Assembly: GCF_023571765.1 (NCBI RefSeq)
Contig: NZ_JAMJXC010000016.1
Span: forward strand, 1 to 64,000
Length of the DNA stretch: 64,000 nucleotides
Origin: Xanthobacter aminoxidans
GTDB taxonomy: Bacteria > Pseudomonadota > Alphaproteobacteria > Rhizobiales > Xanthobacteraceae
Reading direction: 5' to 3'
Positions 1,326 to 17,348 of this stretch are shown piece by piece. Within the stretch, counting starts at the first letter, position 1. Each line of letters opens with the position of its first letter. Made by a program: the position numbers and the translations under genes. The notes beneath the pieces were generated by a model that was not told where the DNA came from, ran no database searches, and was given only the letters and a program-made list of their open reading frames with translations.

Positions 1326-2189
1326 ATGAGCCCTGACATGTCCCCTCTTTCCAGCCCTCCTCTTGCCTGCTCTCCTCTTGACTGCGCGCCGGACGACCTC
1401 CTGTCCGCCTCCGACGTGCGCGACATCGTGAGGCTGCTGGGCGACGTCATCGTCTCGCGCGCGGACTTCTCCTGCGTGAAGCGGCAGCTCATCGATGGCA
1501 TCTCGACGCTGGTCGGCGCCGATTCCTGGACCTGGAGCCTCGGCTGCCTCGCGGAGCCGGGCGAGCAGCCGGTCTATCTCGGCGTGGCCCATGGCGGTTT
1601 CGACGAGGCGCGCTACGGGCGCCTCCTGCTCGCCGCCGCCCATCCCGACATGGCCTGGACCTCGGCGAAGCTGCTGGGCGAGATGCGCGCGTGCAACGCC
1701 CACGTCACCCGGACACGGCAGCAGATCGTGGATGAAGCCACCTTCGTCGCCTCGGGCGTCGGCAGCCACCTGGCTGATGCGGACATCGGACCCTTTATCT
1801 TCTCGCTCCGGCCCATCGACGAGCGCGCGGTCAGCACCATTTCGCTCTTCCGGCGCCGGAACGCAGCCCCGTTTTCCGACCGGGAAGCGCGGATCGCCCA
1901 TATCCTGCTCAGCGAGCTGCCCTGGCTGCACGAGCAGGGCTGGCCGAGCGACCGCGGCGCCAGCGTGCCCCGCCTCTCCCCCCGGCTGCGGCTGGTGCTG
2001 AACCTTCTGCTCGACGGGCGCACGCGCAAGGAAATCGCCGTCAGCCTCAACCTCTCCGAATACACGGTCGCGCAATACCAGCGGGCGGTCTATCGCCACT
2101 TCGGCGTCCGCTCCCACGCCACCCTGCTGCGGCGGTTCCAGATGGGCGACGGTGGCGACCGCCGGTCGACCGTACAGGAGGCGGGCTGA
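1326..2189 (+). CDS. LuxR-family transcriptional regulator
   Basis: About 287 residues. The last 65 or so form a GerE/LuxR helix-turn-helix: LSPRLRLVLNLLLDGRTRKE, then IAVSLNLSEYTVAQYQRAVY and RHFGVRSH. The preceding 200 residues have no receiver aspartate and no recognisable autoinducer-binding motif, so this is an orphan regulator of unknown signal. The start is uncertain: ATG 1326 has a weak ribosome site, and ATG 1293 and ATG 1338 are in frame. It sits between the divergent binding-protein gene and the molybdenum-hydroxylase operon on its own strand, which makes it the obvious candidate regulator of both. Confidence 0.8.
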   Translation: MSPDMSPLSSPPLACSPLDCAPDDLLSASDVRDIVRLLGDVIVSRADFSCVKRQLIDGISTLVGADSWTWSLGCLAEPGEQPVYLGVAHGGFDEARYGRLLLAAAHPDMAWTSAKLLGEMRACNAHVTRTRQQIVDEATFVASGVGSHLADADIGPFIFSLRPIDERAVSTISLFRRRNAAPFSDREARIAHILLSELPWLHEQGWPSDRGASVPRLSPRLRLVLNLLLDGRTRKEIAVSLNLSEYTVAQYQRAVYRHFGVRSHATLLRRFQMGDGGDRRSTVQEAG

Positions 2190-2482: not shown

Positions 2483-5254
2483 ATGCGTCCTTCGCGGCGT
2501 GATTTCGTGACGTGGGTTGCTGCCAGCGGGATCATGCTTGCCATGAGCCGCATCGGCGCAGCGCGGGCCGCCGGGTTCGACGCGAGCCAGACGCTCCCCG
2601 GCCCGGCCGCGTTCCGCCTCCCCGGCGCCACGGCCGGGCGCATCGATGCCTTGGCCAAGGTGACGGGCGCCAAGCTCTACGCATCGGATTTCCGCGCGGC
2701 GGACATGGAGGGCTGGCCGGCGACGACCGCCCACGCCCTGCTCCTGCGTGCCGCCGACGCCACCCACGTCTTCACCGGGCTCGATCTCTCCGCGCTGGAC
2801 GCCGGCGCCCGGCCGACGCAGGTGGTGACGGCGCAGGATCTGGAGCGCGCCGGGGTCCGCGTGCCGCCCTTCTATGCCGGCGACCTGCTCTGCCCGGCGG
2901 GCAAGACACCGCTCTATCTCGGCCAGCCGCTGGCGCTTCTGCTGTTCGAGACGTTCGATGCCTATGACCGGGCGCGGGCGATCCTGCGCGAGAAGGCCCC
3001 CGCCCGATTCGGCGCCGAGACCGGACCCGTGGCGGAGCCGAACTACGCCGCCCTGCGCTTCACCCGCGTCGCCGGGGATGCTCCCGGCGTCCCGGATGTC
3101 TATTCGCCGCTGATCGAGGGCTGGATCAGCCCCGGCGTCTTCGAGCCCGGCGGCCGGCCCGTCTGGCAGCCGCTGCCCACCTCGGAAGGTGGCCAGTACA
3201 AGAAGGGCGCCATCCACGGCGAGGCCATCCGCGCCTTCATCGCCGCCGGCGCGCCGGACATGCTGGTCCTCGACCGCCGATTCCGCACCCAGTCCGTGGA
3301 CCCCATGTTCCTGGAACCGGAGGGCGGCCTCGCCTGGTACGACCCGCAGGCCAAGGCCCTGCGGATGGTGCTCGGCGTCCAGTCGCCGCTCGAAGCGAGC
3401 GAGGAGCTGGCCCACCTTCTGGGAGCGGCGGCGGCGGGGTTCCGCCCCGAGCGGATCGAGAGCCATTTCGCCCATCTGGGCGGCGGCTTCGGCGGGCGCG
3501 ACCATACCCCGTTCCCGTTCTACGTGGCTTTGGCCGCCATGTTCCTGCCGGGACACCCCATCCGCCTCGCCCACGACCGGTTTCAGCAGTTCCAGGGCGG
3601 CATCAAGCGCCATGCCTTCGACATGCACACGCAGGTGGCCTTCGAACGCGCCACCGGACGGATGCGGGCCTTTGCGGCCGACCATGTCCTCGATGGTGGC
3701 GGCCTCGCCAACTATTCGGCGAGCGTGGCCGCAGTGTCGGCCACATCAGCCATCGGCATCTACGATGTCCCGAAAGTGGACGTGACCACCCTCGCCGAGC
3801 ACACCCGGGGCGTCACGGCCGGGTCCATGCGCGGCTACGGCGTGCTCCAGACCACCACAGCCCTTGAGACGCTGGTGGACGAAGCGGCGCAAGCCCTGTC
3901 GATGGACCCTATCACCCTAAGGCGGCGCAACCTGCTGAAGGCCGGCGGCCTCACCATGACCGGCAATCCGTGGACCGTCTCGATCCGCACGCCAGAAATC
4001 CTCGACAAGCTGGAAGGCCATGCCCTGTGGCGGGGCCGCGACGAGGCCCGCAAGGCAGCCCCGGCCGGGTCACTGGTCGGCACCGGCGTCGCCGTCTGCG
4101 CCAAGGACTACGGGACGGGCGCCGACTGCTCCCTCGGCCGGGTGGAGGTCGATCCCCAGGGGCACATCCGCATCTTCTGCGACGCGGTCGAGATGGGCAA
4201 CGGCATCGGCACGGCGGTGGCGAACCGCGTGGCGGGCCTGCTCGGACGGCGGGCGGATGCGGTCTCCGTCGCCCGCATCGATGCGTTCGATGAACTCGGG
4301 CTCGTGACCTCAGGCGATCCCTACACCCTCACACAGGCGGAGCAGGACGCCGCCGCCCGCAATCCGCGCTGGGTGCCGGCGATCAGTTCGGCCACCAGCG
4401 CCTCCATCGGTGCCCATGTGGGTACCCAGGCGGCGGCCGAGGCGGCGCGGCTCATTTTTCGCTTCGGGCTGTGGCCGGCGGCGCTCAGCCTGTGGGGCAT
4501 CGCCCAGGACGATCCGCGCCGCTTCCTTTGGCAGGAGGCGTTCTGGTTCGACGGTGCGCTCATCCTCTCCGGCCTGCCGCCGCTGCAGCAGGAGAAGGTG
4601 GCCGCCCGCGCGCACGAGATGGGCGGCCTCACCGGCGCCATGGCCCACGCCTTCTCCCGCTGGGCATGGGCGCAGGCGGCTTTTCCGCTGGACGGGTTCG
4701 AATGGGTCGTGGACCTCGACGCGCTGGCGGTGCGGCGCGGCGGCGGTGCGTTCAAGGTGCTGGACCGCAGCTTCATCGCCTTCCCGCCGGCGAGCTACAA
4801 CCGGATCGGCACCTCCTTCACATCGAGCTGCGGCACGCTGGTCAAGGTCGAGATCGAGAAGGCGAGCGGCGCCGTGCGGGTCTCGCGGGCCTACAGCGTG
4901 CTGGAATGCGGCGAGGTGCTAACCCCCGAGGTGGTGGTCGGCCAGGCGCAAGGCGGCTTCGCCATGGGCCTTGGCTACGCTTTGCTCGAAACCCTGCCGC
5001 CGTTCGAGGACGGGCCCGGCAATGGCCGCTGGAACCTCGGCGACTATGTGGTCGCCCGCGGCTCCGATCTGCCCCTCCACGCGCTGGAGGTGGAAGTCTT
5101 GCCACGCGTCGCCCCGAACGAACCGCCCAAGGGCATGGCCGAGGTGGTCATGATCCCGGTGGTGCCCGCCATTCTCAACGCCATCCACGATGCCACCGGC
5201 CATCGTTTCCGTGCCTTGCCCGTCACGCCGGACGATGTCCGGCGGGTGCTGTGA
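2483..5254 (+). CDS. Xanthine-dehydrogenase-family molybdopterin-binding subunit, Tat-exported
   Basis: 923 residues, slightly longer than usual aldehyde-oxidase-type large subunits because it carries its own export signal. A twin-arginine motif (SRRDFVTWVAASG, Arg5-Arg6) precedes a hydrophobic stretch, so the folded cofactor-loaded enzyme should go to the periplasm. Family marks are GGGFGGR near residue 333 (molybdopterin side), QGGFAMGLGYALLE late in the chain, and the C-terminal GMAEVVMIPVVPAI with the expected catalytic glutamate near residue 887. The reaction class is hydroxylation of an N-heterocycle or aldehyde with water as oxygen donor. The [2Fe-2S] subunit and a cytochrome c follow at once, so electrons probably pass to the respiratory chain rather than NAD; no FAD subunit is present. 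The nearest described class is isoquinoline 1-oxidoreductase/periplasmic aldehyde dehydrogenase. Substrate not deducible. Confidence 0.92.
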   Translation: MRPSRRDFVTWVAASGIMLAMSRIGAARAAGFDASQTLPGPAAFRLPGATAGRIDALAKVTGAKLYASDFRAADMEGWPATTAHALLLRAADATHVFTGLDLSALDAGARPTQVVTAQDLERAGVRVPPFYAGDLLCPAGKTPLYLGQPLALLLFETFDAYDRARAILREKAPARFGAETGPVAEPNYAALRFTRVAGDAPGVPDVYSPLIEGWISPGVFEPGGRPVWQPLPTSEGGQYKKGAIHGEAIRAFIAAGAPDMLVLDRRFRTQSVDPMFLEPEGGLAWYDPQAKALRMVLGVQSPLEASEELAHLLGAAAAGFRPERIESHFAHLGGGFGGRDHTPFPFYVALAAMFLPGHPIRLAHDRFQQFQGGIKRHAFDMHTQVAFERATGRMRAFAADHVLDGGGLANYSASVAAVSATSAIGIYDVPKVDVTTLAEHTRGVTAGSMRGYGVLQTTTALETLVDEAAQALSMDPITLRRRNLLKAGGLTMTGNPWTVSIRTPEILDKLEGHALWRGRDEARKAAPAGSLVGTGVAVCAKDYGTGADCSLGRVEVDPQGHIRIFCDAVEMGNGIGTAVANRVAGLLGRRADAVSVARIDAFDELGLVTSGDPYTLTQAEQDAAARNPRWVPAISSATSASIGAHVGTQAAAEAARLIFRFGLWPAALSLWGIAQDDPRRFLWQEAFWFDGALILSGLPPLQQEKVAARAHEMGGLTGAMAHAFSRWAWAQAAFPLDGFEWVVDLDALAVRRGGGAFKVLDRSFIAFPPASYNRIGTSFTSSCGTLVKVEIEKASGAVRVSRAYSVLECGEVLTPEVVVGQAQGGFAMGLGYALLETLPPFEDGPGNGRWNLGDYVVARGSDLPLHALEVEVLPRVAPNEPPKGMAEVVMIPVVPAILNAIHDATGHRFRALPVTPDDVRRVL

Positions 5255-5267
5255 AGGGAGAAACCGC

Positions 5268-5783
5268 TTGCCTCCGGTCTCACTCACCATCAACGGTCGC
5301 AGCCACGGTCCCATCGAGGTCCGCGAGGGCCTGAGCATGAACGACTTCCTGCGGGAAGTGCTGGGCATGACCGGTACCAAGTTCGGCTGCGGCGCCGCCC
5401 AGTGCCTCAGTTGCGCGGTCATCGTGGATCATGCGGACGGAACCAGTTCCACCACGCCCACCTGCATCGCGTCCGCCACCGATTTCAACACGCTCGCCAT
5501 CCGCACTGTGGAGGGCCACGCGAAGAGCGGCGAGCTGACGCCGCTGCAGAAGAGCTTCGTCGCCCATTTCGCCTTCCAGTGCGGCTATTGCACCCCCGGC
5601 TTCCTCAACGAGGGGCAGGTGTTGCTGGAGCGGCTGGAACGCTCGCCCATTCCCCGGGCCGATCTGGAGCGCACCATCGCCGAGGCCCTCGACGGCCATC
5701 TGTGCCGCTGCTCCGGCTACGTCAAATACCACCAGGCGGTGCGCGATGTCGTGCTCGCCGACCCCAAACGCTTCCTGACCTGA
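5268..5783 (+). CDS. [2Fe-2S] subunit of the molybdenum hydroxylase
   Basis: 171 residues from a TTG at 5268, chosen because GAAGGGAG lies just upstream and the translation PPVSLTINGRSHGPIEV matches the family's N-terminus. The plant-type cluster ligands are Cys41, Cys46, Cys49 and Cys66. The second, four-helix cluster uses Cys105, Cys108 (CGYCTPGF), Cys146 and Cys148 (CRCSGY), so both clusters are intact. It relays electrons from the molybdenum centre to the downstream cytochrome. There is no signal peptide, so it should be exported by hitchhiking on the Tat signal of the large subunit, as known for this family. Thirteen bases separate it from the preceding gene. Confidence 0.93.
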   Translation: MPPVSLTINGRSHGPIEVREGLSMNDFLREVLGMTGTKFGCGAAQCLSCAVIVDHADGTSSTTPTCIASATDFNTLAIRTVEGHAKSGELTPLQKSFVAHFAFQCGYCTPGFLNEGQVLLERLERSPIPRADLERTIAEALDGHLCRCSGYVKYHQAVRDVVLADPKRFLT

Positions 5784-5792
5784 GGAGCTTCG

Positions 5793-6428
5793 ATGCTGTT
5801 CGACAGGCGCCTCGCAATAACCCTGCCTGCGGCGGCCCTCGCCGGGCTGCTGGCGGCAGCCGGGATCGCGCTGTCGGCGCCCGCAGGTACGCTTTCGGCG
5901 CCCGCAGGTACTCTTGCGCCGCCGGACGCCTTCGCCGCCATCGCCGATCCCGCGCAGCGGTCGGCGGCCTATTTCGGTGAGCTGAGCAAGGTGCTCACCC
6001 ACCCGCGCTGCACCAATTGCCACCCCGCCACGGATCGGCCCCGACAGGGGGATTCAGCGCGTCTGCACCAGCCGCCGGTGACGCGCGGCGCGGACGGGTT
6101 CGGCACCGCGAGCCTTAGGTGCGGCACCTGCCATCACGGCGAGAATTACGCGCCGGCCGGCGTCCCCGGCCATCCCGAATGGCATCTCGCGCCCGCCGAG
6201 ATGGCCTGGGAGGGCAAGAGCCCGGCCGAAATTTGCATCCAGATCAAGGACCCGAGCCGCAACGGCGGACGATCGCTGGCCGATCTCATCGCCCATATCG
6301 GCGACGACACGCTGGTCGGCTGGGCCTGGCATCCGGGCGGCGCGCGGACGCCCGCGCCGGGCTCGCAACAGGAGGCGAAAGCCCTGGTCAAGGCGTGGGT
6401 CGAGAGCGGCGCCGCCTGCCCCAAATGA
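5793..6428 (+). CDS. Di-haem cytochrome c electron acceptor of the molybdenum hydroxylase
   Basis: 211 residues with an N-terminal signal sequence and two haem-binding CxxCH motifs, CTNCH (73-77) and CGTCH (110-114). It follows the iron-sulphur subunit by nine bases in the same operon. Three-subunit hydroxylases of this layout (large, small, cytochrome) are exported oxidoreductases that feed a terminal oxidase; similar proteins are often labelled 'isoquinoline 1-oxidoreductase subunit'. A seven-residue unit SAPAGTL occurs twice just after the signal region, apparently a recent in-frame duplication. Confidence 0.88.
   Translation: MLFDRRLAITLPAAALAGLLAAAGIALSAPAGTLSAPAGTLAPPDAFAAIADPAQRSAAYFGELSKVLTHPRCTNCHPATDRPRQGDSARLHQPPVTRGADGFGTASLRCGTCHHGENYAPAGVPGHPEWHLAPAEMAWEGKSPAEICIQIKDPSRNGGRSLADLIAHIGDDTLVGWAWHPGGARTPAPGSQQEAKALVKAWVESGAACPK
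5874..5911 (+). repeat. 21-bp tandem duplication within the cytochrome gene
   Basis: The 17-base string TCGGCGCCCGCAGGTAC occurs at 5874-5890 and 5895-5911, a 21-base period that keeps the frame and duplicates seven residues at the signal-peptide/mature junction. Confidence 0.85.
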
Positions 6429-6474
6429 TCTGCCCCCAGCGACCCGCGCAAAATGACATATGGAGGAGGAAACG

Positions 6475-7572
6475 ATGAAATACCGTTCCGTCGGATTGGC
6501 CGTGGCGGCGGCGCTCGCCGCAACGCCGCTGCCCGGCGCCCTCGCGGCCGAGCCACCGGCCTATCTCAAGCCCATCTCCGGGCCGCCGCAGCCGCTTTCC
6601 GCGCAGGATCTCGCCACCCGCAACGTCCTCCAGCTCAACACCACCATGTTCGCGCTGTACGACAATGCCGGCACCGCGTTTCGCCGCAACATCCTCGCCA
6701 GCCATCCGGTCATCCTGGCGCTGTTCTCGGGCGCCGGCGGCCGCATGATCCTCTACCGGCCGGGCCAGCCGCCGCTGGAGGCGCCCTCGGTGCCCAAGGC
6801 CTATCAGGTGATGAAGTCGCTGGGCCACAGCGCCATGGCCATTTCCGAGGTCGTGCTGCCGTATCTGGACACGCCGAGCGACACCTCCTGGGTCGCGCCC
6901 ATGCGGGCCTATCTGAGTGAGATGAAGAGCGCACTGGAGACCATCGGCGCGGCGGAGATGCCCGATGCGTGGCGGGCGAATTCCCGCGCCATCCTGGAGA
7001 ACAACATCGCCTTCATGGAGGACAGCCTCGCCAAGGGCGTCGTCACCCTCGATGCGGTGCAGGCCTATGCGAAGAAGCAGGCGCCGGTCCTGCGCAACGC
7101 CATCGCCTGGGCGGCCCAGACGCAGGTGAAGCACTGGATGGGCGTGCTGGACGGCTGGAAGAAGGACCTCGGCGGCAACTTCGATCAGGCCTTCGGCGCC
7201 AGCAACACCATCTATGTGGCCCGCCAGAACAACGTGCTGTTCAGCGTCCTCGCCCAGTATTTCGGCGAGAAGGCCATCAACGACCGCCTGTTCCTGATCG
7301 AGACCGTCTCCTTCACCACCACGCCGGAGGACATGCTGACCGCCGTGGTGCGCATCATCTCCGACCGCTCGGTGGGCGGGCTGTTCTTCAACAACGACCG
7401 GCTCATGGATTACGAGCTGATGGGAGGCGATGCCCGCAAGGCCATCATCGCGGAGATGAAGGCGCGCGGGCAGGAGCCGTTCCTGCCGCCGCAGGTGCCG
7501 TTCGGCTCGAAGCAGTGGCCGGCGCTGATCTCCGGCGGATCGGGCGCCGCCTCCCTCGACGATCTCCATTGA
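6475..7572 (+). CDS. Secreted protein of unknown function in the hydroxylase operon
   Basis: 365 residues from ATG 6475, preceded by an excellent ribosome site (GGAGGAGG). Residues 1-25 form a clear signal peptide ending ALAA. The mature part is mostly helical in character, with no cysteine pairs or haem motifs and no family I recognise. It contains GGRMILYRPGQPP, a long helical middle (YLSEMKSALETIGA) and a conserved-looking GGLFFNNDRLMDYE. Its place between the cytochrome and the PuuE-like gene, with short gaps, marks it as an operon member; a substrate-handling or assembly role is only a guess. Confidence 0.8.
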   Translation: MKYRSVGLAVAAALAATPLPGALAAEPPAYLKPISGPPQPLSAQDLATRNVLQLNTTMFALYDNAGTAFRRNILASHPVILALFSGAGGRMILYRPGQPPLEAPSVPKAYQVMKSLGHSAMAISEVVLPYLDTPSDTSWVAPMRAYLSEMKSALETIGAAEMPDAWRANSRAILENNIAFMEDSLAKGVVTLDAVQAYAKKQAPVLRNAIAWAAQTQVKHWMGVLDGWKKDLGGNFDQAFGASNTIYVARQNNVLFSVLAQYFGEKAINDRLFLIETVSFTTTPEDMLTAVVRIISDRSVGGLFFNNDRLMDYELMGGDARKAIIAEMKARGQEPFLPPQVPFGSKQWPALISGGSGAASLDDLH

Positions 7573-7628
7573 ACGACGCCCCGGGCGCGGCACATCCGTG
7601 CCCGGGACCATGCACAGGCAGGTGGGAC

Positions 7629-8615
7629 ATGCGCGCACCGATCTTCGCCCTTCTCCTTGCCGCCGTCGCGGCGCTCACCCCCGGGCGCGCTCCGGCGGCA
7701 GAGGGCGCTGGCACCGACTGGATCACCGGCCTGCCGCGGCAGGACATTCCGGTCGCCGCATGGCCGGGCGGCAGGAAGGTCGCCGTGCTGTTCGTCCTCT
7801 ACGTGGAAACATGGGGCCACGGACAGGGGCCGAACTTCCGCCCCGACATGACCGGCCGCACGCCCGATCTGGTGGACGAGGGGTTCCGGCAATACGCCAT
7901 CAATTTCGGCCTGCCCCGCACCGGCCGGCTGTTCAAGGAGATGGGCGTTCCCCTCAGCCTCGCGCTGAATGCCCAGTTCCCCAAGGCGCAGCCGCAGGTG
8001 TGGGCGACGCTGCGGGCGCTCGTTCCGTCAGCGCCCATCATCGCCCACGGGCTGAACAATTCCACCGACCTCCTGCCCCTGTCGGAGGGGCCGGCGGCGC
8101 AGCGGGCCTATATCCGCAAGACGCTGGACATGATCGAGGCAGACACCGGCGTGCGCTCCACCGGCTGGTCGAGCCCGAGCGTCTATCCCGATGCGCAGAC
8201 CTTCGAGGCCACCGCCGCCGAAGGCATCCGCTACACCCTCGACGGGATGGATTCCGACGTGCTGGCGCGCCTCGACACCAAGCCGGCGCCGCTGGTGCTG
8301 GTGCCCTACCCGCCGAGCGTGGTGGACATGGGCCAGTATCTCTCCCGCTTCAAGGAAGCCGACGACCTCGCACGCCTCTGGATCGACTACGTGCGCGAGC
8401 TGGCCCGCGAGGCGAAAGCCGATCCGGCACGCCCGGCGACGGTGGTCGCCATCGGCATCCACCCCTTCGTCGTCGGCACGCCGGCGGGTGCGGCCGCCCT
8501 GCGGCGGGTGCTGGAGGCGCTGAAGGCCGAGGACCAGGTCTGGCTGGGCAACACGGAGGCGGTGATGCAGGCCGCCGGTCCGTCTTTGGCGAGTCCCGCT
8601 CCCGGCAAGAAGTGA
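7629..8615 (+). CDS. Secreted polysaccharide-deacetylase-fold hydrolase, PuuE-like
   Basis: 328 residues with a signal peptide (RAPIFALLLAAVAALTPG). The fold is the NodB/polysaccharide-deacetylase barrel, and the variant resembles cofactor-free allantoinase PuuE: VLYVETWGHGQGP where the family has its first motif, AHGLNNS in the metal-motif position, and a late GIHPFVVGTP. PuuE-type enzymes open cyclic amides or ureides. Paired in one operon with a molybdenum hydroxylase this suggests, but does not prove, stepwise periplasmic attack on an N-heterocycle: hydroxylation to a lactam, then ring opening. Metal-dependent sugar deacetylation is the alternative. Start chosen at ATG 7629. Confidence 0.78.
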   Translation: MRAPIFALLLAAVAALTPGRAPAAEGAGTDWITGLPRQDIPVAAWPGGRKVAVLFVLYVETWGHGQGPNFRPDMTGRTPDLVDEGFRQYAINFGLPRTGRLFKEMGVPLSLALNAQFPKAQPQVWATLRALVPSAPIIAHGLNNSTDLLPLSEGPAAQRAYIRKTLDMIEADTGVRSTGWSSPSVYPDAQTFEATAAEGIRYTLDGMDSDVLARLDTKPAPLVLVPYPPSVVDMGQYLSRFKEADDLARLWIDYVRELAREAKADPARPATVVAIGIHPFVVGTPAGAAALRRVLEALKAEDQVWLGNTEAVMQAAGPSLASPAPGKK

Positions 8616-8967
8616 TGAAGCGTCCTCAAATACCGCTCATACCGAGATCTGGAGGGTGCGCCGGGGCTTGACGAGAAGTTGAAGCCAATTTTCGGCGGGG
8701 AAAAATGCACAGCCCTCCCTTGACCCGCGAAGATCGACGAAGTCGGCGCAGGCGTTGAATAAATCCTGTTTTAAGAAATGGCCTCCGAACGGACTGAGAT
8801 TACTAACCTACCACCCGACGTATCGGCAGGTATCAACATATTTCCCCGCCCCCTGTGCGATGGCGCGCAAAGCAAAACGCGGCGCTTGGGCTTGAGATAA
8901 CGTCCCGCCGCGCCGCAGGGCGGCTAGATGCAACGCAAGTTGCTCTTTATCGATTGGGGGATACGCA
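8616..8967. other. Intergenic control region, 352 bp
   Basis: No convincing reading frame. It holds the second exact copy of CGACGTATCGGCA (8816-8828), followed directly by a direct GGTATC (8829-8834), an AT-richer stretch around 8755-8815 and a small hairpin GCAAC-GCAA-GTTGC (8930-8943). It most likely contains the promoter of the DUF1254 gene. No T-rich terminator for the upstream operon was found. Confidence 0.5.
8816..8828. promoter_or_regulatory. CGACGTATCGGCA motif, copy 3
   Basis: Exact 13-base repeat of 2418-2430, here followed at once by GGTATC in direct orientation. It lies about 140 bases before the ATG at 8968. Confidence 0.35.
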
Positions 8968-10398
8968 ATGAAAGTTTCCAGGCGCACAGTTACGGCCGGT
9001 CTCGGCCTTCTGGGTGCAAGCTCAGCGCTTGGCTCTGCGCAGGCGGAAGGCTTCATCGGCGAAATGGTGACGGACGCGGAAGATCTGCGCGCCGCGTCGG
9101 ATGCCTATATCTACGGCTACCCGCTCGTGACCATGGAGTTCACGCGCCGGGTGATGACCAATGTGGCCGCCCCCGAGGGCAGCCATGCGCCCATGGGGCA
9201 ATTCGCGCGCCTGCGCACCTATCCCGACGCGAGCTTCCGCGACGTGACCGCGCCCAACGCGGACACGCTCTACACGATGACGTGGCTCGACGTGGCCAAG
9301 GAGCCGTGGATCGTCAGCATCCCCGACATGAAGGGGCGCTATTACCTCTTCCCCATGCTGGACGGCTGGACCAACGTGTTCCAGGTTCCCGGCACCCGCA
9401 CCACGGGCACCGGCGCGCAGACCTACGCCATCACCGGCCCCGGCTGGAAGGGCACGCTCCCGGCCGGCGTCGTCCAGTACAAGTCGCCGACCGCGCTCGT
9501 CTGGCTGCTCGGCCGCATCTACTGCACCGGCACGCCGGAGGATTACGCTGCCGTCCATGCGCTGCAGGATGCCTGCAAGGTCTATCCCCTCAGCGCCTAT
9601 GGCAAGGACTACACCCCGCCCGCCGGCAAGGTGGACCCGTCCGTCGACATGAAGACGGCGGTGCGCGAGCAGGTGAACGCCCTGAGCGGCGTCGAGTACT
9701 TCAAGCTTCTGGCGGAGCTGATGAAGACCAACCCGCCCGTTCCCGCCGACGCGCCCATCCTACCGAAGCTCGCCGAGATCGGCATCGTGCCCGGCAAGGA
9801 TTTCGACGCCAAGGCCGCCAATCCCGAAGTGCTCGACCGGGTGAAGAAGATCAGCGTCGACCGTGTCATGCTGCACATGGTCACCAGCGGAGACTTCAAG
9901 AACGTCAACGGCTGGCGCTACAGCACCAAGACCGGCCTCTACGGCACCGACTACATGCAGCGCGCGCTGATCACCGCCGTCGGGCTCGGTGCCAACCGCC
10001 CCGAGGACGCGATCTATCCCATCTCGCTGAAGTCCGGCAGCGGCATTTTCGCGCGCAAGTACAACGGCGCGAACAAGTATGTGATGCACTTCCCCAAGGG
10101 GCAGCTGCCTCCGGTGAAAGGCTTCTGGTCCCTCACCATGTATGACGACAAGTATTTCTTCGTCGCCAATCCCATCAACCGCTACTCGATCAGCGCCCGG
10201 CAGAACCTGAAGGCCAATGCCGACGGCTCGATCGACCTCTACGTCCAGCACGACTCGCCGGGAGCGGACAAGGAATCGAACTGGCTGCCGGCACCGGCGG
10301 GCGAGTTCATCCTCATGCTGCGCATGTACTGGCCGAACCCCAAGAAGCCTTCGATCCTCGACGGCACCTGGACGATCCCTGAAGTCAAGGCGTCCTGA
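8968..10398 (+). CDS. Exported DUF1254/DUF1214 protein
   Basis: 476 residues. The N-terminus SRRTVTAGLG followed by a hydrophobic stretch is Tat-like or Sec-like. Residues 40-180 match DUF1254 (AYIYGYPLVTMEFTRRVM, then TAPNADTLYTMTWLDV) and the last 130 match DUF1214 (GFWSLTMYDDKYFFVANPIN, then PAGEFILMLRMYWPNP). The two domains normally occur together in secreted proteins of unknown biochemical role. It is physically adjacent to the hydroxylase operon and shares an upstream motif with it, so a joint function is likely. No catalytic residues can be named. Confidence 0.88.
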   Translation: MKVSRRTVTAGLGLLGASSALGSAQAEGFIGEMVTDAEDLRAASDAYIYGYPLVTMEFTRRVMTNVAAPEGSHAPMGQFARLRTYPDASFRDVTAPNADTLYTMTWLDVAKEPWIVSIPDMKGRYYLFPMLDGWTNVFQVPGTRTTGTGAQTYAITGPGWKGTLPAGVVQYKSPTALVWLLGRIYCTGTPEDYAAVHALQDACKVYPLSAYGKDYTPPAGKVDPSVDMKTAVREQVNALSGVEYFKLLAELMKTNPPVPADAPILPKLAEIGIVPGKDFDAKAANPEVLDRVKKISVDRVMLHMVTSGDFKNVNGWRYSTKTGLYGTDYMQRALITAVGLGANRPEDAIYPISLKSGSGIFARKYNGANKYVMHFPKGQLPPVKGFWSLTMYDDKYFFVANPINRYSISARQNLKANADGSIDLYVQHDSPGADKESNWLPAPAGEFILMLRMYWPNPKKPSILDGTWTIPEVKAS

Positions 10399-10545
10399 CA
10401 CCAGGGCGCTGGCTCCAGCGCCCCCGCAGAGAAACGATCCGCCCTCCGGACGCAGGCGACCTCACCGGCCGCCTGCGCAGAGAGCGTTCATTGACTGTTC
10501 CCGAACTCCCGGCCCGGGCGCCGGGTCCACCACAAGGAAAATGAG

Positions 10546-11166
10546 ATGACCTTTCGCACGCTGAAGCTGGCCATCGCTGCCGGCAGCCTTGCCGCCGCCA
10601 GCCTCGCCGCCGCCCTGCCGGCCGCGGCCCAGGCACCTGTCGTGCCGAAGCCCGAGGCGGTCGAGGTCGTGACCCTGCCGGGCGTCGGCAGCGCCACCGT
10701 CCTCACCTACAAGGTTCGCTTCGTCTCTGCCGATCCGGCGACCCGCCGGGTCGTGCTCGAGACCCCGGCCGGCAAGCGCTGGGCCGTCATCGCCCCGCCG
10801 CTGGTCGGCGACCTCACCGCCTTCCGCAACGGCCAGAGCCTGCTGATCCGCAAGCTGCCCGGCGTGGTCACCGCCATTGCCAAGCCTGCCAAGAACGAGC
10901 CCGCGGAAGTCCTGAACGAGGTCGTGGTGAACGACGGCCTGCCCGGCCTGCCCGAGGGCTTCGGCCTGCGCGAGGTGACGATCGTCGCCCCCGTCGTCGG
11001 CACCGATCCCGCCGCGGGCACCGTGAGCTTCCCCGGCCCGGATGGCTACCTGCGCACCCTGAAGGCCGCCAACGGCAAGGTTCTCAGCGACCTCCAGACG
11101 CTGCAGCAGGGTGTCAACGCGAAGTTCACCTACGTGGAAGGCCTCGCCATCAACGCGGTGCAGTGA
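10546..11166 (+). CDS. Secreted protein of unknown function
   Basis: 206 residues with a textbook signal peptide ending AAAQA. The mature part is beta-rich in character and lacks cysteine. It reads like a periplasmic beta-barrel or OB-type domain (SATVLTYKVRFVSADPATRR, VVLETPAGKRWAV), but I recognise no named family. It is the last gene of the exported cluster, 147 bases after the DUF1254 gene. Hairpins begin at its stop codon. Confidence 0.78.
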   Translation: MTFRTLKLAIAAGSLAAASLAAALPAAAQAPVVPKPEAVEVVTLPGVGSATVLTYKVRFVSADPATRRVVLETPAGKRWAVIAPPLVGDLTAFRNGQSLLIRKLPGVVTAIAKPAKNEPAEVLNEVVVNDGLPGLPEGFGLREVTIVAPVVGTDPAAGTVSFPGPDGYLRTLKAANGKVLSDLQTLQQGVNAKFTYVEGLAINAVQ

Positions 11167-11185
11167 ACGGTCGCTAACGACCGTT
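11166..11185 (+). terminator. Hairpin overlapping the stop codon
   Basis: AACGGTCG-CTAA-CGACCGTT, an 8-bp perfect stem beginning in the TGA stop of the preceding gene. There is no T-run. Probably an mRNA 3'-end structure. Confidence 0.45.
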
Positions 11186-11260
11186 TGAAGGATTGGAACC
11201 TCGACCTCGGTGGGGTGTGCGATGTCGGCTCCGGGCCGCCGTGCAGCGAGCGAGGTTCCA

Positions 11261-11293
11261 GGCCGTCAGGGGCTCCGAACGCCCCTGACGGCC
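11261..11293 (+). terminator. Strong intrinsic-type terminator hairpin
   Basis: GGCCGTCAGGGGC (11261-11273), a seven-base loop, and the exact complement GCCCCTGACGGCC (11281-11293), followed by GCTTTCGTTCT. This 13-bp perfect stem with a T-rich tail closes the exported cluster. A further dyad, GGAACCTCG/CGAGGTTCC (11195-11203 and 11251-11259), brackets the region before it. Confidence 0.75.
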
Positions 11294-11455
11294 GCTTTCG
11301 TTCTGGGAGCATAATCGTCACGGCCATCGGAGTCGCCGCATCACCGGCGTGCTCGCGTCCCGACGAATCGGGTGGTCAGCACCCGAGGCGATCGGCGCTC
11401 ATGAGCCGGCTGGAACAGCGCGGACGGGGACGGCCTGAAATTCAGAAGACAGGGC

Positions 11456-11529
11456 TGGAGCGGGTGAAGGGAATCGAACCCTCGTATTCAGCTTGGAAGG
11501 CTGCTGCTCTACCATTGAGCTACACCCGC
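11456..11529 (-). tRNA. tRNA-Gly(TCC)
   Basis: Read on the minus strand: acceptor GCGGGTG pairs with CACCCGC, the anticodon loop is CTTCCAA (anticodon TCC), the T-loop is GGTTCGATTCC, and CCA is encoded. In E. coli the TCC isoacceptor is glyT, next to tufB. Confidence 0.97.
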
Positions 11530-11662
11530 ATGCCGGCTGGCTTAGCATGCCGGTTCAAAGGGCGGAAGAGGTGGCGGGCGACCGGACAGGCCGGTTCCCT
11601 CCTGCTTCCGCGGGCCGGCGGACACCGGCCCCACGCTCGCGAGAGCGCATTGCGACGACGGG

Positions 11663-11747
11663 TGGTGGAGGGGGTTGGATTTGAACCAACGTAGGCAGAG
11701 CCAACGGATTTACAGTCCGTCCCCTTTAACCACTCGGGCACCCCTCC
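11663..11747 (-). tRNA. tRNA-Tyr(GTA)
   Basis: Long variable arm, acceptor GGAGGGG, anticodon loop CTGTAAA (GTA), T-loop GGTTCAAATCC, encoded CCA. It lies 133 bases upstream of tRNA-Gly on the same strand. Confidence 0.97.
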
Positions 11748-12047
11748 ATAACGACGCCCGTCATCGCGGACCTTCATGCCAGAGCAGGAAGGCTTCGAGC
11801 CGGACTGGTGATGCAGGAAAGCGCCAGCGGCCGAAGGTGACGCAGAGCGTGAACTCAAATCGCCATCCGAGGCCGGGTTTATGTGAAAACACGGTGCCGA
11901 AGTCAACCGGAAATCGCCCGCCCATGCGCCTCGATCCCCGCCCCTGTGGACGGCCGGGCCGGCCGTGCCGCCGCAACCGGCACCGAAACGCCTGTCCGGG
12001 CCCCGCCGCCCCTTGCGCGCGGCGGCGGTGTCTGACAAAGCCACGTC

Positions 12048-12905
12048 ATGTCTGATCGTCCGCCCCGCGAACCGCGCCGCCCCGGCGCCCGCCCGCCCTT
12101 CGCCGGCCGTGGCGGCCCGCGCCCATCCGGCGCGCCGTTTCCCCCACGCAAGGGCAAGGGTGGCGGCAAGCCGCCGCCGTGGGCCGGCGCGGACGATGTC
12201 GCGCTGCTCTATGGCTGGCACACGGTCGCCGAGGCGATCGGCAATCCCAAGCGGCGGTTCCGCAAGCTGATGGCGACGGAAAACGCGATCAACCGCCTCG
12301 CCGAGGAGGGACTTGTCCCGCCGGTTACGCCCGAGCTAGTGCGCCCCGGCGACATCGACAAGCTGCTGGGGCCGGATGCGGTGCATCAGGGGCTCCTGGC
12401 GGAGGTCGACCACCTGCGGTCGCCCCCGCTCAAGGATCTCGCGCAGAGCGAGCTTGTCCTCGTGCTCGACCAGATCACCGACCCGCACAATGTCGGCGCC
12501 ATCGTGCGCTCGGCGGCGGCGTTCGGGGTGAGCGCCATCGTCACCACCGCCCGTCACAGTCCGGCGGCCACGGGCGTGCTCGCCAAGAGCGCGTCAGGCG
12601 GGCTGGAGCACGTGCCCTTCTGCCTGGTGCAGAATCTGTCGCGGGCGCTGACCGAGCTGAAGGACAACGGCATGCTGGTGGTCGGCCTCGACAGCGAGGG
12701 GCCGGCGGACATCGAGGACACCCGGTTGCGGGCACCCCTTGCCCTGGTGCTGGGCGCCGAGGGCAAGGGCCTGCGCCAGCTCACCCGCGAGACGTGCGAC
12801 GTACTGGCCCGCATCGACCTGCCCGGCGCCATCAAGAGCCTCAACGTCTCCAATGCCGCCGCCTTGGCCCTCGGCATCGCTCGCCGCGCGTTGAAGAAGG
12901 GCTGA
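12048..12905 (+). CDS. rlmB: 23S rRNA 2'-O-methyltransferase, TrmH/RlmB family
   Basis: 285 residues. A disordered Pro/Arg/Gly-rich head of about 45 residues precedes a substrate-binding domain (LLYGWHTVAEAIGNPKRRFR) and a SpoU knot domain. The knot motifs are intact: LDQITDPHNVGAIVRSAAAF, LVLGAEGKGLRQLTRE and SLNVSNAAALAL. The family transfers a methyl group from S-adenosylmethionine to a 2'-hydroxyl, in RlmB on guanosine 2251 of 23S rRNA. The basic head is longer than in E. coli RlmB. Linkage to tRNA-Tyr/tRNA-Gly is common in alphaproteobacteria, supporting this ortholog over other TrmH paralogs. Confidence 0.9.
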   Translation: MSDRPPREPRRPGARPPFAGRGGPRPSGAPFPPRKGKGGGKPPPWAGADDVALLYGWHTVAEAIGNPKRRFRKLMATENAINRLAEEGLVPPVTPELVRPGDIDKLLGPDAVHQGLLAEVDHLRSPPLKDLAQSELVLVLDQITDPHNVGAIVRSAAAFGVSAIVTTARHSPAATGVLAKSASGGLEHVPFCLVQNLSRALTELKDNGMLVVGLDSEGPADIEDTRLRAPLALVLGAEGKGLRQLTRETCDVLARIDLPGAIKSLNVSNAAALALGIARRALKKG

Positions 12906-13235
12906 CGTGGGTCAGGCCTGCCAGAAGGCAGCCCACCATGCTGCGGCGCATGCATTTTTCGCCCTGCACCTAAGACCAATGACCAATCGTAAGGCTGCCA
13001 CACCTTCGCCATGATACCGCTCGACGCGCCGTGCGCGTCCAGCCCTGCGGGATATCCGTGCGCCAACAATGACGCGGAACCCAGAGGGTCTACCGGAGGA
13101 ACGCCCTGAGATCCGTCGCACTCCCGCGTGCGCACGGCGCTGTGGGCTTGCGCCGAAAAGACCCTCTCTCGCAGGACCTGTTGGGTCCGACATCCGCCGG
13201 CGGCGGAACCCGAAGCGATGGGAGGGATAGGTTCC
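12906..13235. other. Intergenic region, 330 bp
   Basis: Between rlmB and the MFS gene. No coding frame, RNA gene or strong hairpin seen. A Shine-Dalgarno (GGAGGGA, 13221-13227) ends it. It presumably carries the promoter of the MFS gene. Confidence 0.5.
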
Positions 13236-14903
13236 ATGAGCGTGACCACAGCGGGGGCGGCAGCCAAGCCTCGCCCCATGAGCCGGGAGGAGAAGAAGGT
13301 CATCTTCGCCTCGTCCCTGGGCACCGTCTTCGAGTGGTATGATTTCTATCTGTATGGCTCGCTGGCAGCCATCATCGGCGCGCAGTTCTTCTCCGCCTAT
13401 CCGCCGGCCACGCGCGATATCTTCGCCCTGCTGGCCTTCGCAGCCGGCTTCCTGGTGCGCCCCTTCGGCGCCATCGTGTTCGGGCGCATCGGCGATCTCG
13501 TCGGCCGCAAGTACACCTTCCTCGTCACCATCCTCATCATGGGCCTGTCGACCTTCATCGTCGGCATCCTGCCCAATGCCGCCTCCATCGGCATCGCGGC
13601 CCCGATCATCCTGATCGGCCTGCGCCTGCTGCAGGGCCTCGCCCTCGGCGGTGAGTATGGCGGCGCCGCGACCTACGTGGCGGAGCACGCCCCGCACGGC
13701 CGCCGCGGCTTCTACACCTCCTGGATCCAGACCACGGCGACCCTCGGCCTGTTCCTGTCGCTGATCGTGATCCTGTTCACCCGCACCATCGTAGGCGAGC
13801 AGAACTTCGCGGCCTGGGGCTGGCGCGTGCCGTTCCTCGTCTCCATCGCGCTGCTCGGCGTCTCGGTCTGGATTCGCCTCCAGCTCTCCGAATCGCCGAC
13901 CTTCCAGAAGATGAAGGAGGAGGGCACCACCTCGAAGGCACCGCTCTCGGAGGCCTTCGGCAAGTGGGGCAACCTCAAGGTGGTCCTGATCGCGCTGTTC
14001 GGCCTCGTCGCCGGCCAGGGCGTGGTCTGGTACACGGGCCAGTTCTATGCCCTGTTCTTCCTGCAATCGATCCTCAAGGTCGATGGCTACACCTCCAACC
14101 TGCTGATCGCGTGGTCGCTGGTGTTCGGCACGATGTTCTTCGTGTTCTTCGGCTGGCTGTCCGACAAGATCGGCCGCAAGCCGATCATCCTCGCCGGCTG
14201 CCTGATCGCCGCGGCGAGCTATTTCCCGCTGTTCAACATGATCACCACCTACGCCAACCCGGCGCTGGAGAAGGCGATCCAGAACATCCGGGTCACGGTT
14301 GTGTCCGATCCGGCGAACTGCGGAAGCCTGTTCAACCCGGTGGGCACCCGCATCTACACCCAGCCCTGCGACCTCGCCCGCGACTTCCTCGCGAAGTCCT
14401 CGGTGAAGTACTCGACCGAGGCCGGCCCCGCCGGTTCCCCGGTGCAGCTGAAGGTCAACGACACGGTCGTGCCCTACAGCCCCGACTTCAACAAGACGGC
14501 CCTCGCGGCGCTCCAGACGGCGGGCTACCCGTCGGCGGCGACCAACAAGGACGTCGTGAAGATGGCGCATCCGTTCGACATCTTCCGCCCGCAGGTGGCG
14601 GCGGTGATCGGGCTGCTGTTCATCCTCGTGCTGTTCGTGACCATGGTGTACGGCCCGATCGCGGCAGCTCTGGTCGAGCTGTTCCCGGCCCGAATCCGCT
14701 ACACCTCCATGTCGCTGCCCTACCATATCGGCAACGGCTGGTTCGGCGGCCTGCTGCCGGCCACCGCCTTCGCCATGGTGGCCGCCACCGGCGACATCTA
14801 CTACGGCCTCTGGTACCCGATCGTGATCGCGCTGATGACCTTCGTCATCGGCCTTCTGTTCGTGCCCGAGACCAAGGATCGCAACATCGATCACTGGCAC
14901 TGA
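13236..14903 (+). CDS. MFS transporter, metabolite:H+ symporter (MHS) type
   Basis: 555 residues, twelve predicted membrane helices. ATG 13236 is chosen because GGAGGGA sits eight bases upstream; an in-frame ATG at 13218 overlaps that site. Family marks: SSLGTVFEWYDFYLYGSLA at the first helix, FGRIGDLVGRKYTF in loop 2-3, GLRLLQGLALGGEYGGAATY in helices 4-5, and GWLSDKIGRKPI in loop 8-9. An extra-cytoplasmic insert of about 100 residues (near 345-455, with two cysteines) marks the long ProP/KgtP-like subgroup. Substrates of the family are organic acids or osmolytes; which one cannot be read here. Monocistronic, ending in a terminator. Confidence 0.9.
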   Translation: MSVTTAGAAAKPRPMSREEKKVIFASSLGTVFEWYDFYLYGSLAAIIGAQFFSAYPPATRDIFALLAFAAGFLVRPFGAIVFGRIGDLVGRKYTFLVTILIMGLSTFIVGILPNAASIGIAAPIILIGLRLLQGLALGGEYGGAATYVAEHAPHGRRGFYTSWIQTTATLGLFLSLIVILFTRTIVGEQNFAAWGWRVPFLVSIALLGVSVWIRLQLSESPTFQKMKEEGTTSKAPLSEAFGKWGNLKVVLIALFGLVAGQGVVWYTGQFYALFFLQSILKVDGYTSNLLIAWSLVFGTMFFVFFGWLSDKIGRKPIILAGCLIAAASYFPLFNMITTYANPALEKAIQNIRVTVVSDPANCGSLFNPVGTRIYTQPCDLARDFLAKSSVKYSTEAGPAGSPVQLKVNDTVVPYSPDFNKTALAALQTAGYPSAATNKDVVKMAHPFDIFRPQVAAVIGLLFILVLFVTMVYGPIAAALVELFPARIRYTSMSLPYHIGNGWFGGLLPATAFAMVAATGDIYYGLWYPIVIALMTFVIGLLFVPETKDRNIDHWH

Positions 14904-14942
14904 GGTCGCACGCGGCCCCGCCGCGCGTCTCCCCGCAATCGA

Positions 14943-14967
14943 ACGGCTCCGCCCAAGGCGGGGCCGT
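14943..14967 (+). terminator. Intrinsic terminator of the MFS gene
   Basis: ACGGCTCCGCC-CAA-GGCGGGGCCGT, an 11-bp stem with one G-T pair, followed by TTTTCATTT. Confidence 0.85.
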
Positions 14968-15031
14968 TTTCATTTCCCCCAGCCCCCCCGCTTGTTCAGC
15001 CCTTGGCGCGCTGGTAGAGCATGGGGCCGGA

Positions 15032-15106
<75 letters not shown>

Positions 15107-15240
15107 TTTCCCGGTCGGCCCACGTCGGTTGGCGTCGATAATTCAAAGAAAATCAACGGACTGAAAGCCCCGCTCGTCGGAGGCCGCCTTTGGGCATCTG
15201 CTGGCATCGTCAGGTGCCAACAAATCCGGATGCCAACAAT

Positions 15241-15378
15241 ATGGCGCTTTCCGATGCCGTCGTTCGTTCCGCCAAGCCCCAGCCGCGCCCCGTAAAACCG
15301 TCTGGCGGAGGCGACCTCCACCTGCTCGCGACGCCCGCGGGCGGCCGCCTTTGGCGCCTGGCTTACCGATTCGATGGC
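15241..15378 (+). pseudogene. Tyrosine-recombinase integrase remnant (N-terminal DUF4102-type segment only)
   Basis: Starting at ATG 15241, about 46 residues match the N-terminal arm-binding domain of tRNA-targeting phage/island integrases: MALSDAVVRSAKPQPRPVK, then DLHLLATPAGGRLWRLAYRF. After DGGWG the family similarity stops abruptly; the core-binding and catalytic domains (Arg...His-x-x-Arg...Tyr) are absent. Upstream, TGCCAACAAA and TGCCAACAAT repeats resemble the leader of such integrases. It starts 134 bases after tRNA-Thr in the usual orientation, so it records an integration that has since been deleted. Confidence 0.75.
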
Positions 15379-15380
15379 GG

Positions 15381-15422
15381 CTGGGGATCACCAAGCACTC
15401 GCTCTACGAGTGGAGGAAGCGG
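15381..15422 (+). pseudogene. IS3-family OrfA-like helix-turn-helix fragment
   Basis: In a different frame from the integrase remnant, LGITKHSLYEWRKR matches the recognition helix region of IS3-type transposase OrfA. Only these 14 or so residues are recognisable. Its direct abutment to the broken integrase suggests a deletion junction. Confidence 0.45.
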
Positions 15423-15713
15423 AACGGCAACGGCGTCCTTGTCCGACACCCGTCGTCGCCGGACAGCCAGTGCTGCCTGGATCTCGCGGCAACTCAATTC
15501 GCGCGCGCGCCACCGGTGATCCGGTTGGTGGAAAGCGCCCCATATTCGAATAATTCAAATTATTATCTGAATACAAATATCTCACCTCTCCACCAACCAT
15601 CATCCATTTCGGGCGACTATTTATTATAGTTCCAAATCAACGCGATTGATCCCTCAGCTCAGACCGGATACCTCCTCCATACTCAATTCAAATATTTCTC
15701 CTGCCCCACCACG
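15423..15713. other. AT-rich scar/leader region before fecI
   Basis: This stretch, especially 15540-15680, is far richer in A and T than its surroundings and encodes nothing recognisable. It contains the palindrome annotated at 15548-15567 and must carry the promoter of the fecI-fecR unit. Confidence 0.5.
15548..15567. promoter_or_regulatory. Fur-like AT palindrome upstream of fecI
   Basis: AATAATT-CA-AATTATT is a perfect 7-bp dyad (15549-15564) flanked by G and ATC. It resembles the imperfect GATAATGATAATCATTATC Fur box in spacing and composition. A second dyad TTCA-N10-TGAA overlaps it. Iron control through Fur, Irr or RirA is inferred from the downstream fecI-fecR-receptor genes. Confidence 0.45.
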
Positions 15714-16238: not shown

Positions 16239-16266
16239 CCTCAAGGGTTCGTTGAGACATACCCGC

Positions 16267-17238: not shown

Positions 17239-17348
17239 TTGGAAAAAAGTCGCCCGCGCCGGTGCAAGGTCGCCGGGCTGGTTTCGTCCTTGTCCTTGAA
17301 GGTCCTGAACGGCGGCGCGCTGGCGGGCCGGCCTCAAGGAGAGAGACG

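What the first reader, a model, noticed from the sequence alone, without database searches (positions are those of the whole stretch)
2483..8615. Periplasmic molybdenum hydroxylase coupled to a PuuE-like ring-opening hydrolase
A Tat-exported hydroxylase, its [2Fe-2S] subunit, a di-haem cytochrome c, an unknown secreted protein and a secreted PuuE-type deacetylase-fold protein lie in one run with gaps of 9 to 56 bases. A hydroxylase that makes a lactam from an N-heterocycle and an enzyme that opens cyclic amides form a chemically sensible two-step pathway outside the cytoplasm, feeding electrons to the respiratory chain. I know of no described pathway with this exact set.
Basis: partly seen in the sequence, partly recalled or inferred. 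Interest (0 to 1): 0.62.

Follow-up and report, generated by a model that had tools for sequence, protein, structure and literature searches.

The report
Periplasmic molybdenum hydroxylase with ring-hydrolase partner
A soil-bacterium gene set appears to oxidise a small molecule outside the cytoplasm with a molybdenum enzyme and, in some species, to cut the product with a relative of the ring-opening enzyme allantoinase; the enzyme type is known, the combination and its substrate are not.

Summary
The core is a Tat-type xanthine-oxidase-family hydroxylase with its [2Fe-2S] subunit (next to it in 80 of 80 related loci) and a di-haem cytochrome c (75 of 80). The unknown secreted protein lies near it in 52 of 80 and, in four genomes, heads a different molybdenum-hydroxylase operon.

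The PuuE-like gene is optional: near 9 of 80 hydroxylase copies. Yet its carriers nearly always have the hydroxylase: 12 of 13 carriers in 266 family genomes, against 44 of 266 overall. By sequence it lacks the usual deacetylase metal triad. It is not PuuE itself (62.5 bits, cut-off 424.6), and the genome has a true PuuE elsewhere.

The substrate stays unknown. A 40-41% identical sister sits in purine clusters on four Methylobacterium plasmids, which favours an N-heterocycle; but 17 other sister loci show no such genes, and known enzymes of this build oxidise deoxyribose and vanillin. Verdict: a new variant of a known kind.

The parts
2483..5254 (+). Large (molybdenum) subunit, 923 aa, Tat-type motif SRRDF; MoCoBD_1 at residues 261-484, MoCoBD_2 matched in two pieces around a long insertion; Q300 and E887 (in KGMAE) invariant in 12 aligned sequences
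5268..5783 (+). [2Fe-2S] subunit, about 171 aa, TTG start, no signal peptide seen (likely exported as passenger of the large subunit, inference)
5793..6428 (+). Di-haem cytochrome c with hydrophobic leader, 211 aa; Pfam Cytochrome_C7 only below its cut-off; CxxCH at 6009-6023 and 6120-6134; exactly two CxxCH in 73 of 73 homologues counted
6475..7572 (+). Secreted protein of unknown family, 365 aa, mostly helical in the model; recurs beside molybdenum hydroxylases
7629..8615 (+). PuuE-like NodB-fold protein with a leader peptide, 328 aa; E60 and H140 kept, no conserved second metal histidine (N144 at the usual spacing)
1326..2189 (+). LuxR-type regulator upstream on the same strand; present in front of the set in G828 (L015), G650 and G732, but in only 1 of the 80 loci; probable local regulator (inference)

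Best explanation
A periplasmic oxidation module. The molybdenum subunit binds the [2Fe-2S] subunit in the cytoplasm and the pair is exported by Tat (inferred from the motif and from the missing signal on the small subunit). It hydroxylates a small substrate with water-derived oxygen and passes electrons through the iron-sulphur clusters to the di-haem cytochrome c and so to the respiratory chain (inferred from family chemistry). The 365-aa secreted protein is a further component of unknown role that serves the same substrate route. In a subset of species a secreted, metal-independent PuuE-type hydrolase opens or trims the product, most likely a cyclic amide, imide or ureide made from an N-heterocycle. 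Shown: gene content, leader and cofactor motifs, conservation and co-occurrence. Inferred: substrate class, order of steps and the hydrolase reaction.
For: Core conserved: small subunit next to the large one in 80 of 80 loci, cytochrome within 1.6 kb downstream in 75 of 80; three of the five without (L036, L052, L082) are on contigs that end early, two (L025, L029) are not. Tat-type RR motif in 78 of 80. Unknown protein in 52 of 80 and next to a Mo hydroxylase in 8 of the 12 order genomes that carry it. PuuE-like clade in 13 of 266 family genomes, hydroxylase at 62% identity or more in 44 of 266, both in 12; Fisher P 1.2e-9; by genus 9 of 47 with both (10 and 11 singly), P 3.8e-7. Several gene orders: unknown then PuuE-like downstream (own, G650, G732, G828), unknown, PuuE-like, hydroxylase (G825), PuuE-like, unknown, hydroxylase (G721). 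Fold match to PuuE 3cl6: Z 26.1, rmsd 3.3, 269 residues. Metal triad not conserved. A sister hydroxylase is in a purine cluster with PuuD, uraD, uraH, puuE and a nucleobase symporter on 4 of 4 Methylobacterium plasmid records listed.
Against: The PuuE-like gene was found near only 9 of 80 hydroxylase loci and was near neither hydroxylase nor unknown gene in 5 of 13 carriers (G501, G657, G720, G706, G585). In G501 and G657 it is about 85% identical to the window copy while the hydroxylase is 65%, so it probably travelled separately. G608 (82% complete) and, outside the family, G292 have it without a hydroxylase match at E 1e-100. No PuuD, UraH, UraD, NCS2 or 8-oxoguanine deaminase match in the stored stretches of the 80 loci or of 17 other sister loci. 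Two of nine clade members (L062, L067) have a histidine seven residues after H140, where one alignment puts the second metal histidine of HpPgdA; the window has D147 there. The co-occurrence test is not corrected for phylogeny. Nothing here tests catalysis.
Confidence: 0.45

Rival explanations
1. The hydroxylase is a periplasmic aldehyde or sugar dehydrogenase of the deoxyribose/vanillin type. The PuuE-like protein, where present, opens a lactone or acts on an ester or formyl product.
For: The closest characterised build in the papers seen here, a two-subunit Mo dehydrogenase with a potential Tat signal plus a cytochrome c, oxidises deoxyribose (to a proposed lactone) in Pseudomonas simiae, and a relative is the proposed vanillin dehydrogenase of P. 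putida (PMC6365646, passages). PceSML, another member of the wider family, converts most aldehydes tested, though not with cytochrome c (PMC5131310, passages). 17 of 21 sister loci show no purine genes.
Against: PuuE acts on a cyclic imide (PMC3084791, passages); I recall no lactonase among its relatives. The Methylobacterium sister sits in purine clusters. No known lactonase or sugar gene was recognised in the five-gene set.
Confidence: 0.32
2. The PuuE-like gene is a passenger: a secreted deacetylase-fold protein acting on an unrelated envelope or environmental compound, linked by chance and by shared mobility.
For: Not found near 71 of 80 hydroxylase loci; alone in 5 of 13 carriers; occurs in distant lineages at high identity (Mesorhizobium soli copies).
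Against: 12 of 13 carriers also have the hydroxylase although only 44 of 266 genomes do; at least three gene orders keep it next to the unknown protein or the hydroxylase; the sugar-deacetylase metal site is not conserved.
Confidence: 0.2

Closest known systems
Periplasmic iorAB-like molybdenum dehydrogenases with cytochrome c (deoxyribose dehydrogenase of P. simiae, proposed vanillin dehydrogenase PP_3621-3623; PMC6365646, passages)
   Same: Mo subunit with potential Tat signal, small subunit and cytochrome c in one putative operon
   Different: The window has in addition the secreted unknown protein and the PuuE-like protein, and a long insertion in MoCoBD_2. Sequences were not compared with these enzymes here
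Sister hydroxylase in purine clusters of Methylobacterium plasmids (L156, L159, L207, L208)
   Same: Tat-type signal seen in L156 and L159, same insertion in L156, small subunit and cytochrome c next to it; a puuE in the same cluster
   Different: 40-41% identity; cytochrome of 442 aa with three CxxCH in L156; its PuuE is the annotated ordinary one; no paper on it was found in the searches made
PuuE allantoinase (3cl6, TIGR03212)
   Same: Fold (Z 26.1), no full metal triad, shared residues in the alignment (E60, H140, D208, Y227, D233, H278; their role was not tested)
   Different: Leader peptide; 62.5 bits against a cut-off of 424.6; 24% identity in the fold alignment; the genome already has a true PuuE (517.6 bits)
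HpPgdA / HP0310 and CE4 deacetylases
   Same: NodB fold
   Different: Metal triad not conserved in the window protein and its clade
E. coli PaoABC
   Same: Tat-exported family member whose other subunits hitchhike (PMC4273604, start of abstract in the listing only)
   Different: PaoABC has a FAD subunit and no cytochrome c gene beside it; large subunits 23% identical

Membership tests
Xanthine oxidase family of molybdenum hydroxylases | MoCo-binding domains and conserved active-site glutamate | tested here: met
   MoCoBD_1 151.9 bits, MoCoBD_2 89.9 bits, cut-off 27; E887 and Q300 invariant in 12 of 12 aligned sequences incl. E. coli XdhA and PaoC; that E887 is the catalytic one is from family knowledge
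Xanthine oxidase family of molybdenum hydroxylases | Fer2 plus Fer2_2 iron-sulphur subunit | tested here: met
   both over cut-off
Xanthine oxidase family of molybdenum hydroxylases | a/b hammerhead domain (PF01315) | tested here: inconclusive
   no Pfam hit at E 0.1, but the R-x-D-x-x-x-K-x-T-G start aligns with XdhA
Named equivalogs (XdhA, PaoC, CoxL, 4-hydroxybenzoyl-CoA reductase and others) | score over the NCBIfam cut-off | tested here: not met
   13 models matched, best 196.5 bits against a cut-off of 780
Periplasmic Mo dehydrogenase with cytochrome c (deoxyribose/vanillin type) | Tat-type signal, [2Fe-2S] subunit and cytochrome c in one gene run | tested here: met
Periplasmic Mo dehydrogenase with cytochrome c (deoxyribose/vanillin type) | sequence kinship to those enzymes | not tested
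   their sequences were not fetched
Periplasmic Mo dehydrogenase with cytochrome c (deoxyribose/vanillin type) | oxidises aldehyde or sugar | not testable with these tools
   needs enzyme assay
PuuE allantoinase | TIGR03212 score over cut-off | tested here: not met
   62.5 bits, cut-off 424.6
PuuE allantoinase | NodB fold without the metal triad | tested here: met
   fold; sites: E60 where metal-type 3rxz has D, H140 kept, no conserved second His
PuuE allantoinase | hydrolyses allantoin | not testable with these tools
   needs assay
CE4 metal-dependent polysaccharide deacetylases | D-H-H metal triad | tested here: not met
   by sequence alignment only (model coordinates not inspected): E60 for D, H140, then N144 (9 of 9 at that spacing) or the variable column 147 (D 3, Q 3, H 2, R 1 of 9)

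The most novel reading that the evidence does not exclude
An entirely extracytoplasmic heterocycle-degradation route parallel to purine breakdown: a Tat-exported hydroxylase plays the part of xanthine dehydrogenase, a multicopper oxidase or the unknown 365-aa protein that stands in its place supplies a second oxidation, and a secreted PuuE-type hydrolase opens the ring, so that only open-chain products need be imported.
Probability: 0.18. Interest if true: 0.75.

Novelty: new variant of a known kind. Interest (0 to 1): 0.48.

Why it matters
If right, some soil and plant-associated bacteria oxidise and open ring compounds outside the membrane and bank the electrons directly in the respiratory chain. 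It gives a defined, testable four- to six-gene set, and a first context (molybdenum hydroxylases) for a conserved secreted protein family with no match in Pfam, NCBIfam or PDB sequences, found in Bradyrhizobium, Ancylobacter and Methylocystis records among the 80 loci.

Tried and rejected
The puuE query was out of frame; its puuE column was dropped and redone in frame. Gene maps came from home-made callers (first version; second version) that miss genes; presence counts rest on tblastn. One search failed on a syntax error and was rerun. In one search the printed 'cyt any 80' is a counting artefact of the script (a dictionary lookup created empty entries); the count used is 75.

Fold of the unknown protein: AlphaFold pLDDT 72.8. 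Foldseek against PDB gave nothing at E 0.001 or better. VIA-align gave lpg1979 (4jx2_B) at Z 12.5, rmsd 7.5, 267 residues, next 9.0; for helical proteins such Z can be chance, and a profile search of PDB sequences gave nothing better than E 0.77, so it is not used. Distant homologues (22-28%) show no match to the molybdenum hydroxylases tested in the stretches fetched (six loci).

Purine-binding residues: I compared the window with bovine residue positions that I recalled and that no call supplied; not used as evidence.

A search of a wider phylum draw found no PuuE-like clade member in the 248 other genomes at E 1e-40. Promoter and terminator scans gave nothing usable. PADLOC gave no match. 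Seven of the 18 plasmid records with a large-subunit relative (H8, H11, H14, H15, H21, H23, H24) were not opened. Papers: passages only of PMC3084791, PMC10967932, PMC6365646, PMC4562309 and PMC5131310; everything else was search listings. The Ramazzina 2008 PuuE paper is not held, so its content is second-hand or recalled.
Full report
What is there. Five + strand genes lie at 2483-8615 with gaps of 13, 9, 46 and 56 bases. The large subunit (923 aa) starts with a Tat-type motif and carries MoCoBD_1 and a MoCoBD_2 matched in two pieces; the small subunit carries Fer2 and Fer2_2 and shows no leader. The third gene has two haem motifs, as do 73 of 73 homologues counted. The fourth has no match in Pfam, NCBIfam or PADLOC. 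The fifth is PuuE-like at 62.5 bits against a cut-off of 424.6. Leader peptides were read by eye.

Conservation of the core. A scan of a collection of 84,980 species genomes with short peptide patterns kept the best 80 of 256 loci encoding relatives of the large subunit. All 80 have the small subunit next to the large one; 75 have the cytochrome within 1.6 kb downstream; 52 have the unknown protein and 9 the PuuE-like protein in the stored stretch. Some stretches are short contigs, so these absences are upper bounds. Of the 28 loci without the unknown protein, 20 carry a multicopper oxidase, and none of the 80 has both. Over the 61 loci with at least 6 kb on each side the numbers are 43, 13 and 0. 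This is confounded by clade, and one genome (G705) has multicopper oxidase, unknown and PuuE-like genes in a row.

The unknown protein. In 297 genomes of the order it is found in 12 at E 1e-8. In four (own, G456, G501, G521) it is next to the window-type large subunit (coordinates). In four more (G292, G452, G492, G579) it is followed by a FAD subunit, a fused iron-sulphur and molybdenum hydroxylase and an ABM-domain protein; domains were assigned by Pfam in G452 (L143) and the others match it at 59-77%. In the last four (G303, G385, G405, G563) no match to these molybdenum hydroxylases was seen within the 16-kb stretch. The fused enzyme shows no export signal in L143 by eye, so the secreted protein is more likely tied to the substrate than to export of the enzyme. 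That is inference.

The PuuE-like protein. Its close clade is found in 13 of 266 family genomes and, apart from the window's own genome, in none of 249 genomes drawn from the phylum. The hydroxylase (62% identity or more) is in 44 of the same 266. Both occur in 12: own, G650, G732, G828, G657, G720, G825, G706, G705, G585, G721 and G501. The exception is G608, 82% complete, in which the gene follows the unknown protein. Fisher P is 1.2e-9 by genome and 3.8e-7 by genus, neither corrected for phylogeny. In the 13, it lies on one stretch with the hydroxylase in 6 (own, G650, G732, G828, G825, G721), with the unknown protein but no hydroxylase in 2 (G705, G608; both on short contigs), and near neither in 5. 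In the order draw, G292 has the gene without the hydroxylase.

Its mechanism. The model (pLDDT 76.5, 9 sequences) matches PuuE 3cl6 (Z 26.1, rmsd 3.3, 269 residues) and M. smegmatis 3rxz (Z 26.7, rmsd 2.9, 262 residues), a tie. Two loops of the model (63-80 and 229-240) are under pLDDT 50 and its coordinates were not inspected, so the site was judged by sequence only. 3rxz has D-x-D where the window has Y-V-E60, and H-G-Y-L-H where the window has H140-G-L-N-N144. HpPgdA, which binds a metal ion at its active site (PMC3084791 passages), has H-G-Y-S-H; HMMER places its second histidine either three residues further on, at window D147, by a gap, or at N144 if read without a gap. Position 144 is N in 9 of 9 clade members; position 147 is D, Q, H or R in 3, 3, 2 and 1. 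So no second histidine is conserved, as in PuuE, described as not metal-dependent (PMC10967932 passages). Metal binding through E60, H140 and another residue is not excluded. The genome has a true PuuE on contig 15 (517.6 bits), so this protein is not its only allantoinase candidate.

Substrate. Sister hydroxylases at about 34-42% identity have the same type of insertion in the four examples aligned. On 4 of 4 Methylobacterium plasmid records (40-41%) the sister follows a nucleobase symporter and sits with PuuD, uraD, uraH, puuE and an 8-oxoguanine deaminase. In 17 other sister loci, and in the 80 window-type loci, no match to PuuD, UraH, UraD, the symporter or the deaminase was found at E 1e-5; the only purine-type matches in the 80 were the nine PuuE-like genes themselves. 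On the other side, the closest characterised enzymes of this build that I saw oxidise deoxyribose and, as proposed, vanillin (PMC6365646 passages). I therefore favour an N-heterocycle, but not strongly.

Judgement. The kind of enzyme is known. The set with the unknown protein and a secreted NodB-fold hydrolase without the usual metal triad did not turn up in the eight paper searches.

Noticed in passing
L156, L159, L207, L208 (Methylobacterium plasmids), about 4630-18190 of each locus: A molybdenum hydroxylase (Tat-type signal seen in L156 and L159) with [2Fe-2S] subunit and c-type cytochrome (three CxxCH in L156) sits in a purine cluster with PuuD, uraH, uraD, puuE, 8-oxoguanine deaminase and a nucleobase symporter: a candidate periplasmic, cytochrome-linked purine hydroxylase.
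   Followed up: partly
80 loci L015-L094: The unknown protein (52 loci) and a multicopper oxidase (20 loci) never occur together in the stored stretch beside the hydroxylase, as if one stands in for the other; G705 (L187) has both.
   Followed up: partly
L143, L144, L145, L146: A conserved four-gene run: unknown secreted protein, FAD subunit, fused Fe-S/molybdenum hydroxylase (no export signal seen in L143), ABM-domain protein.
   Followed up: partly
L016 14107-15053; L019 9001-11770: In one Mesorhizobium soli record the PuuE-like gene is split between two frames; the other record (L019) gives one unbroken PuuE-like match, but its large-subunit match stops short at 11487. Their large subunits are 82-84% identical to the window's, which suggests transfer between families.
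   Followed up: no
L023 9001-14066: Mosaic: unknown protein 84% identical to the window's while hydroxylase is 71% and cytochrome 64%.
   Followed up: no
L035, L061, L150: In Bradyrhizobium-type loci a second 713-aa molybdenum hydroxylase and its small subunit lie on the other strand; TctC receptors (L061, L150), an SBP family 6 receptor and MmgE/PrpD (L035, L150) lie nearby, which looks catabolic.
   Followed up: partly
L154 7923-8909 (Agrobacterium tumefaciens pAt): A distant relative (22%) of the unknown protein follows an ABC-transporter gene run that includes a dihydropyrimidinase, another cyclic-amide hydrolase.
   Followed up: no
window 8968-10398: DUF1254/DUF1214 protein with a twin-arginine-like leader downstream; of the PuuE-like loci fetched from family genomes it was seen next to the set only in G650 (L182).
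   Followed up: partly
window about 4280-4820: Long insertion inside MoCoBD_2 with an H-x-F-x-R-W-x-W-x-x-A-x-F motif in the window-type subunits and in L156 and L160, absent from E. coli XdhA and PaoC.
   Followed up: no
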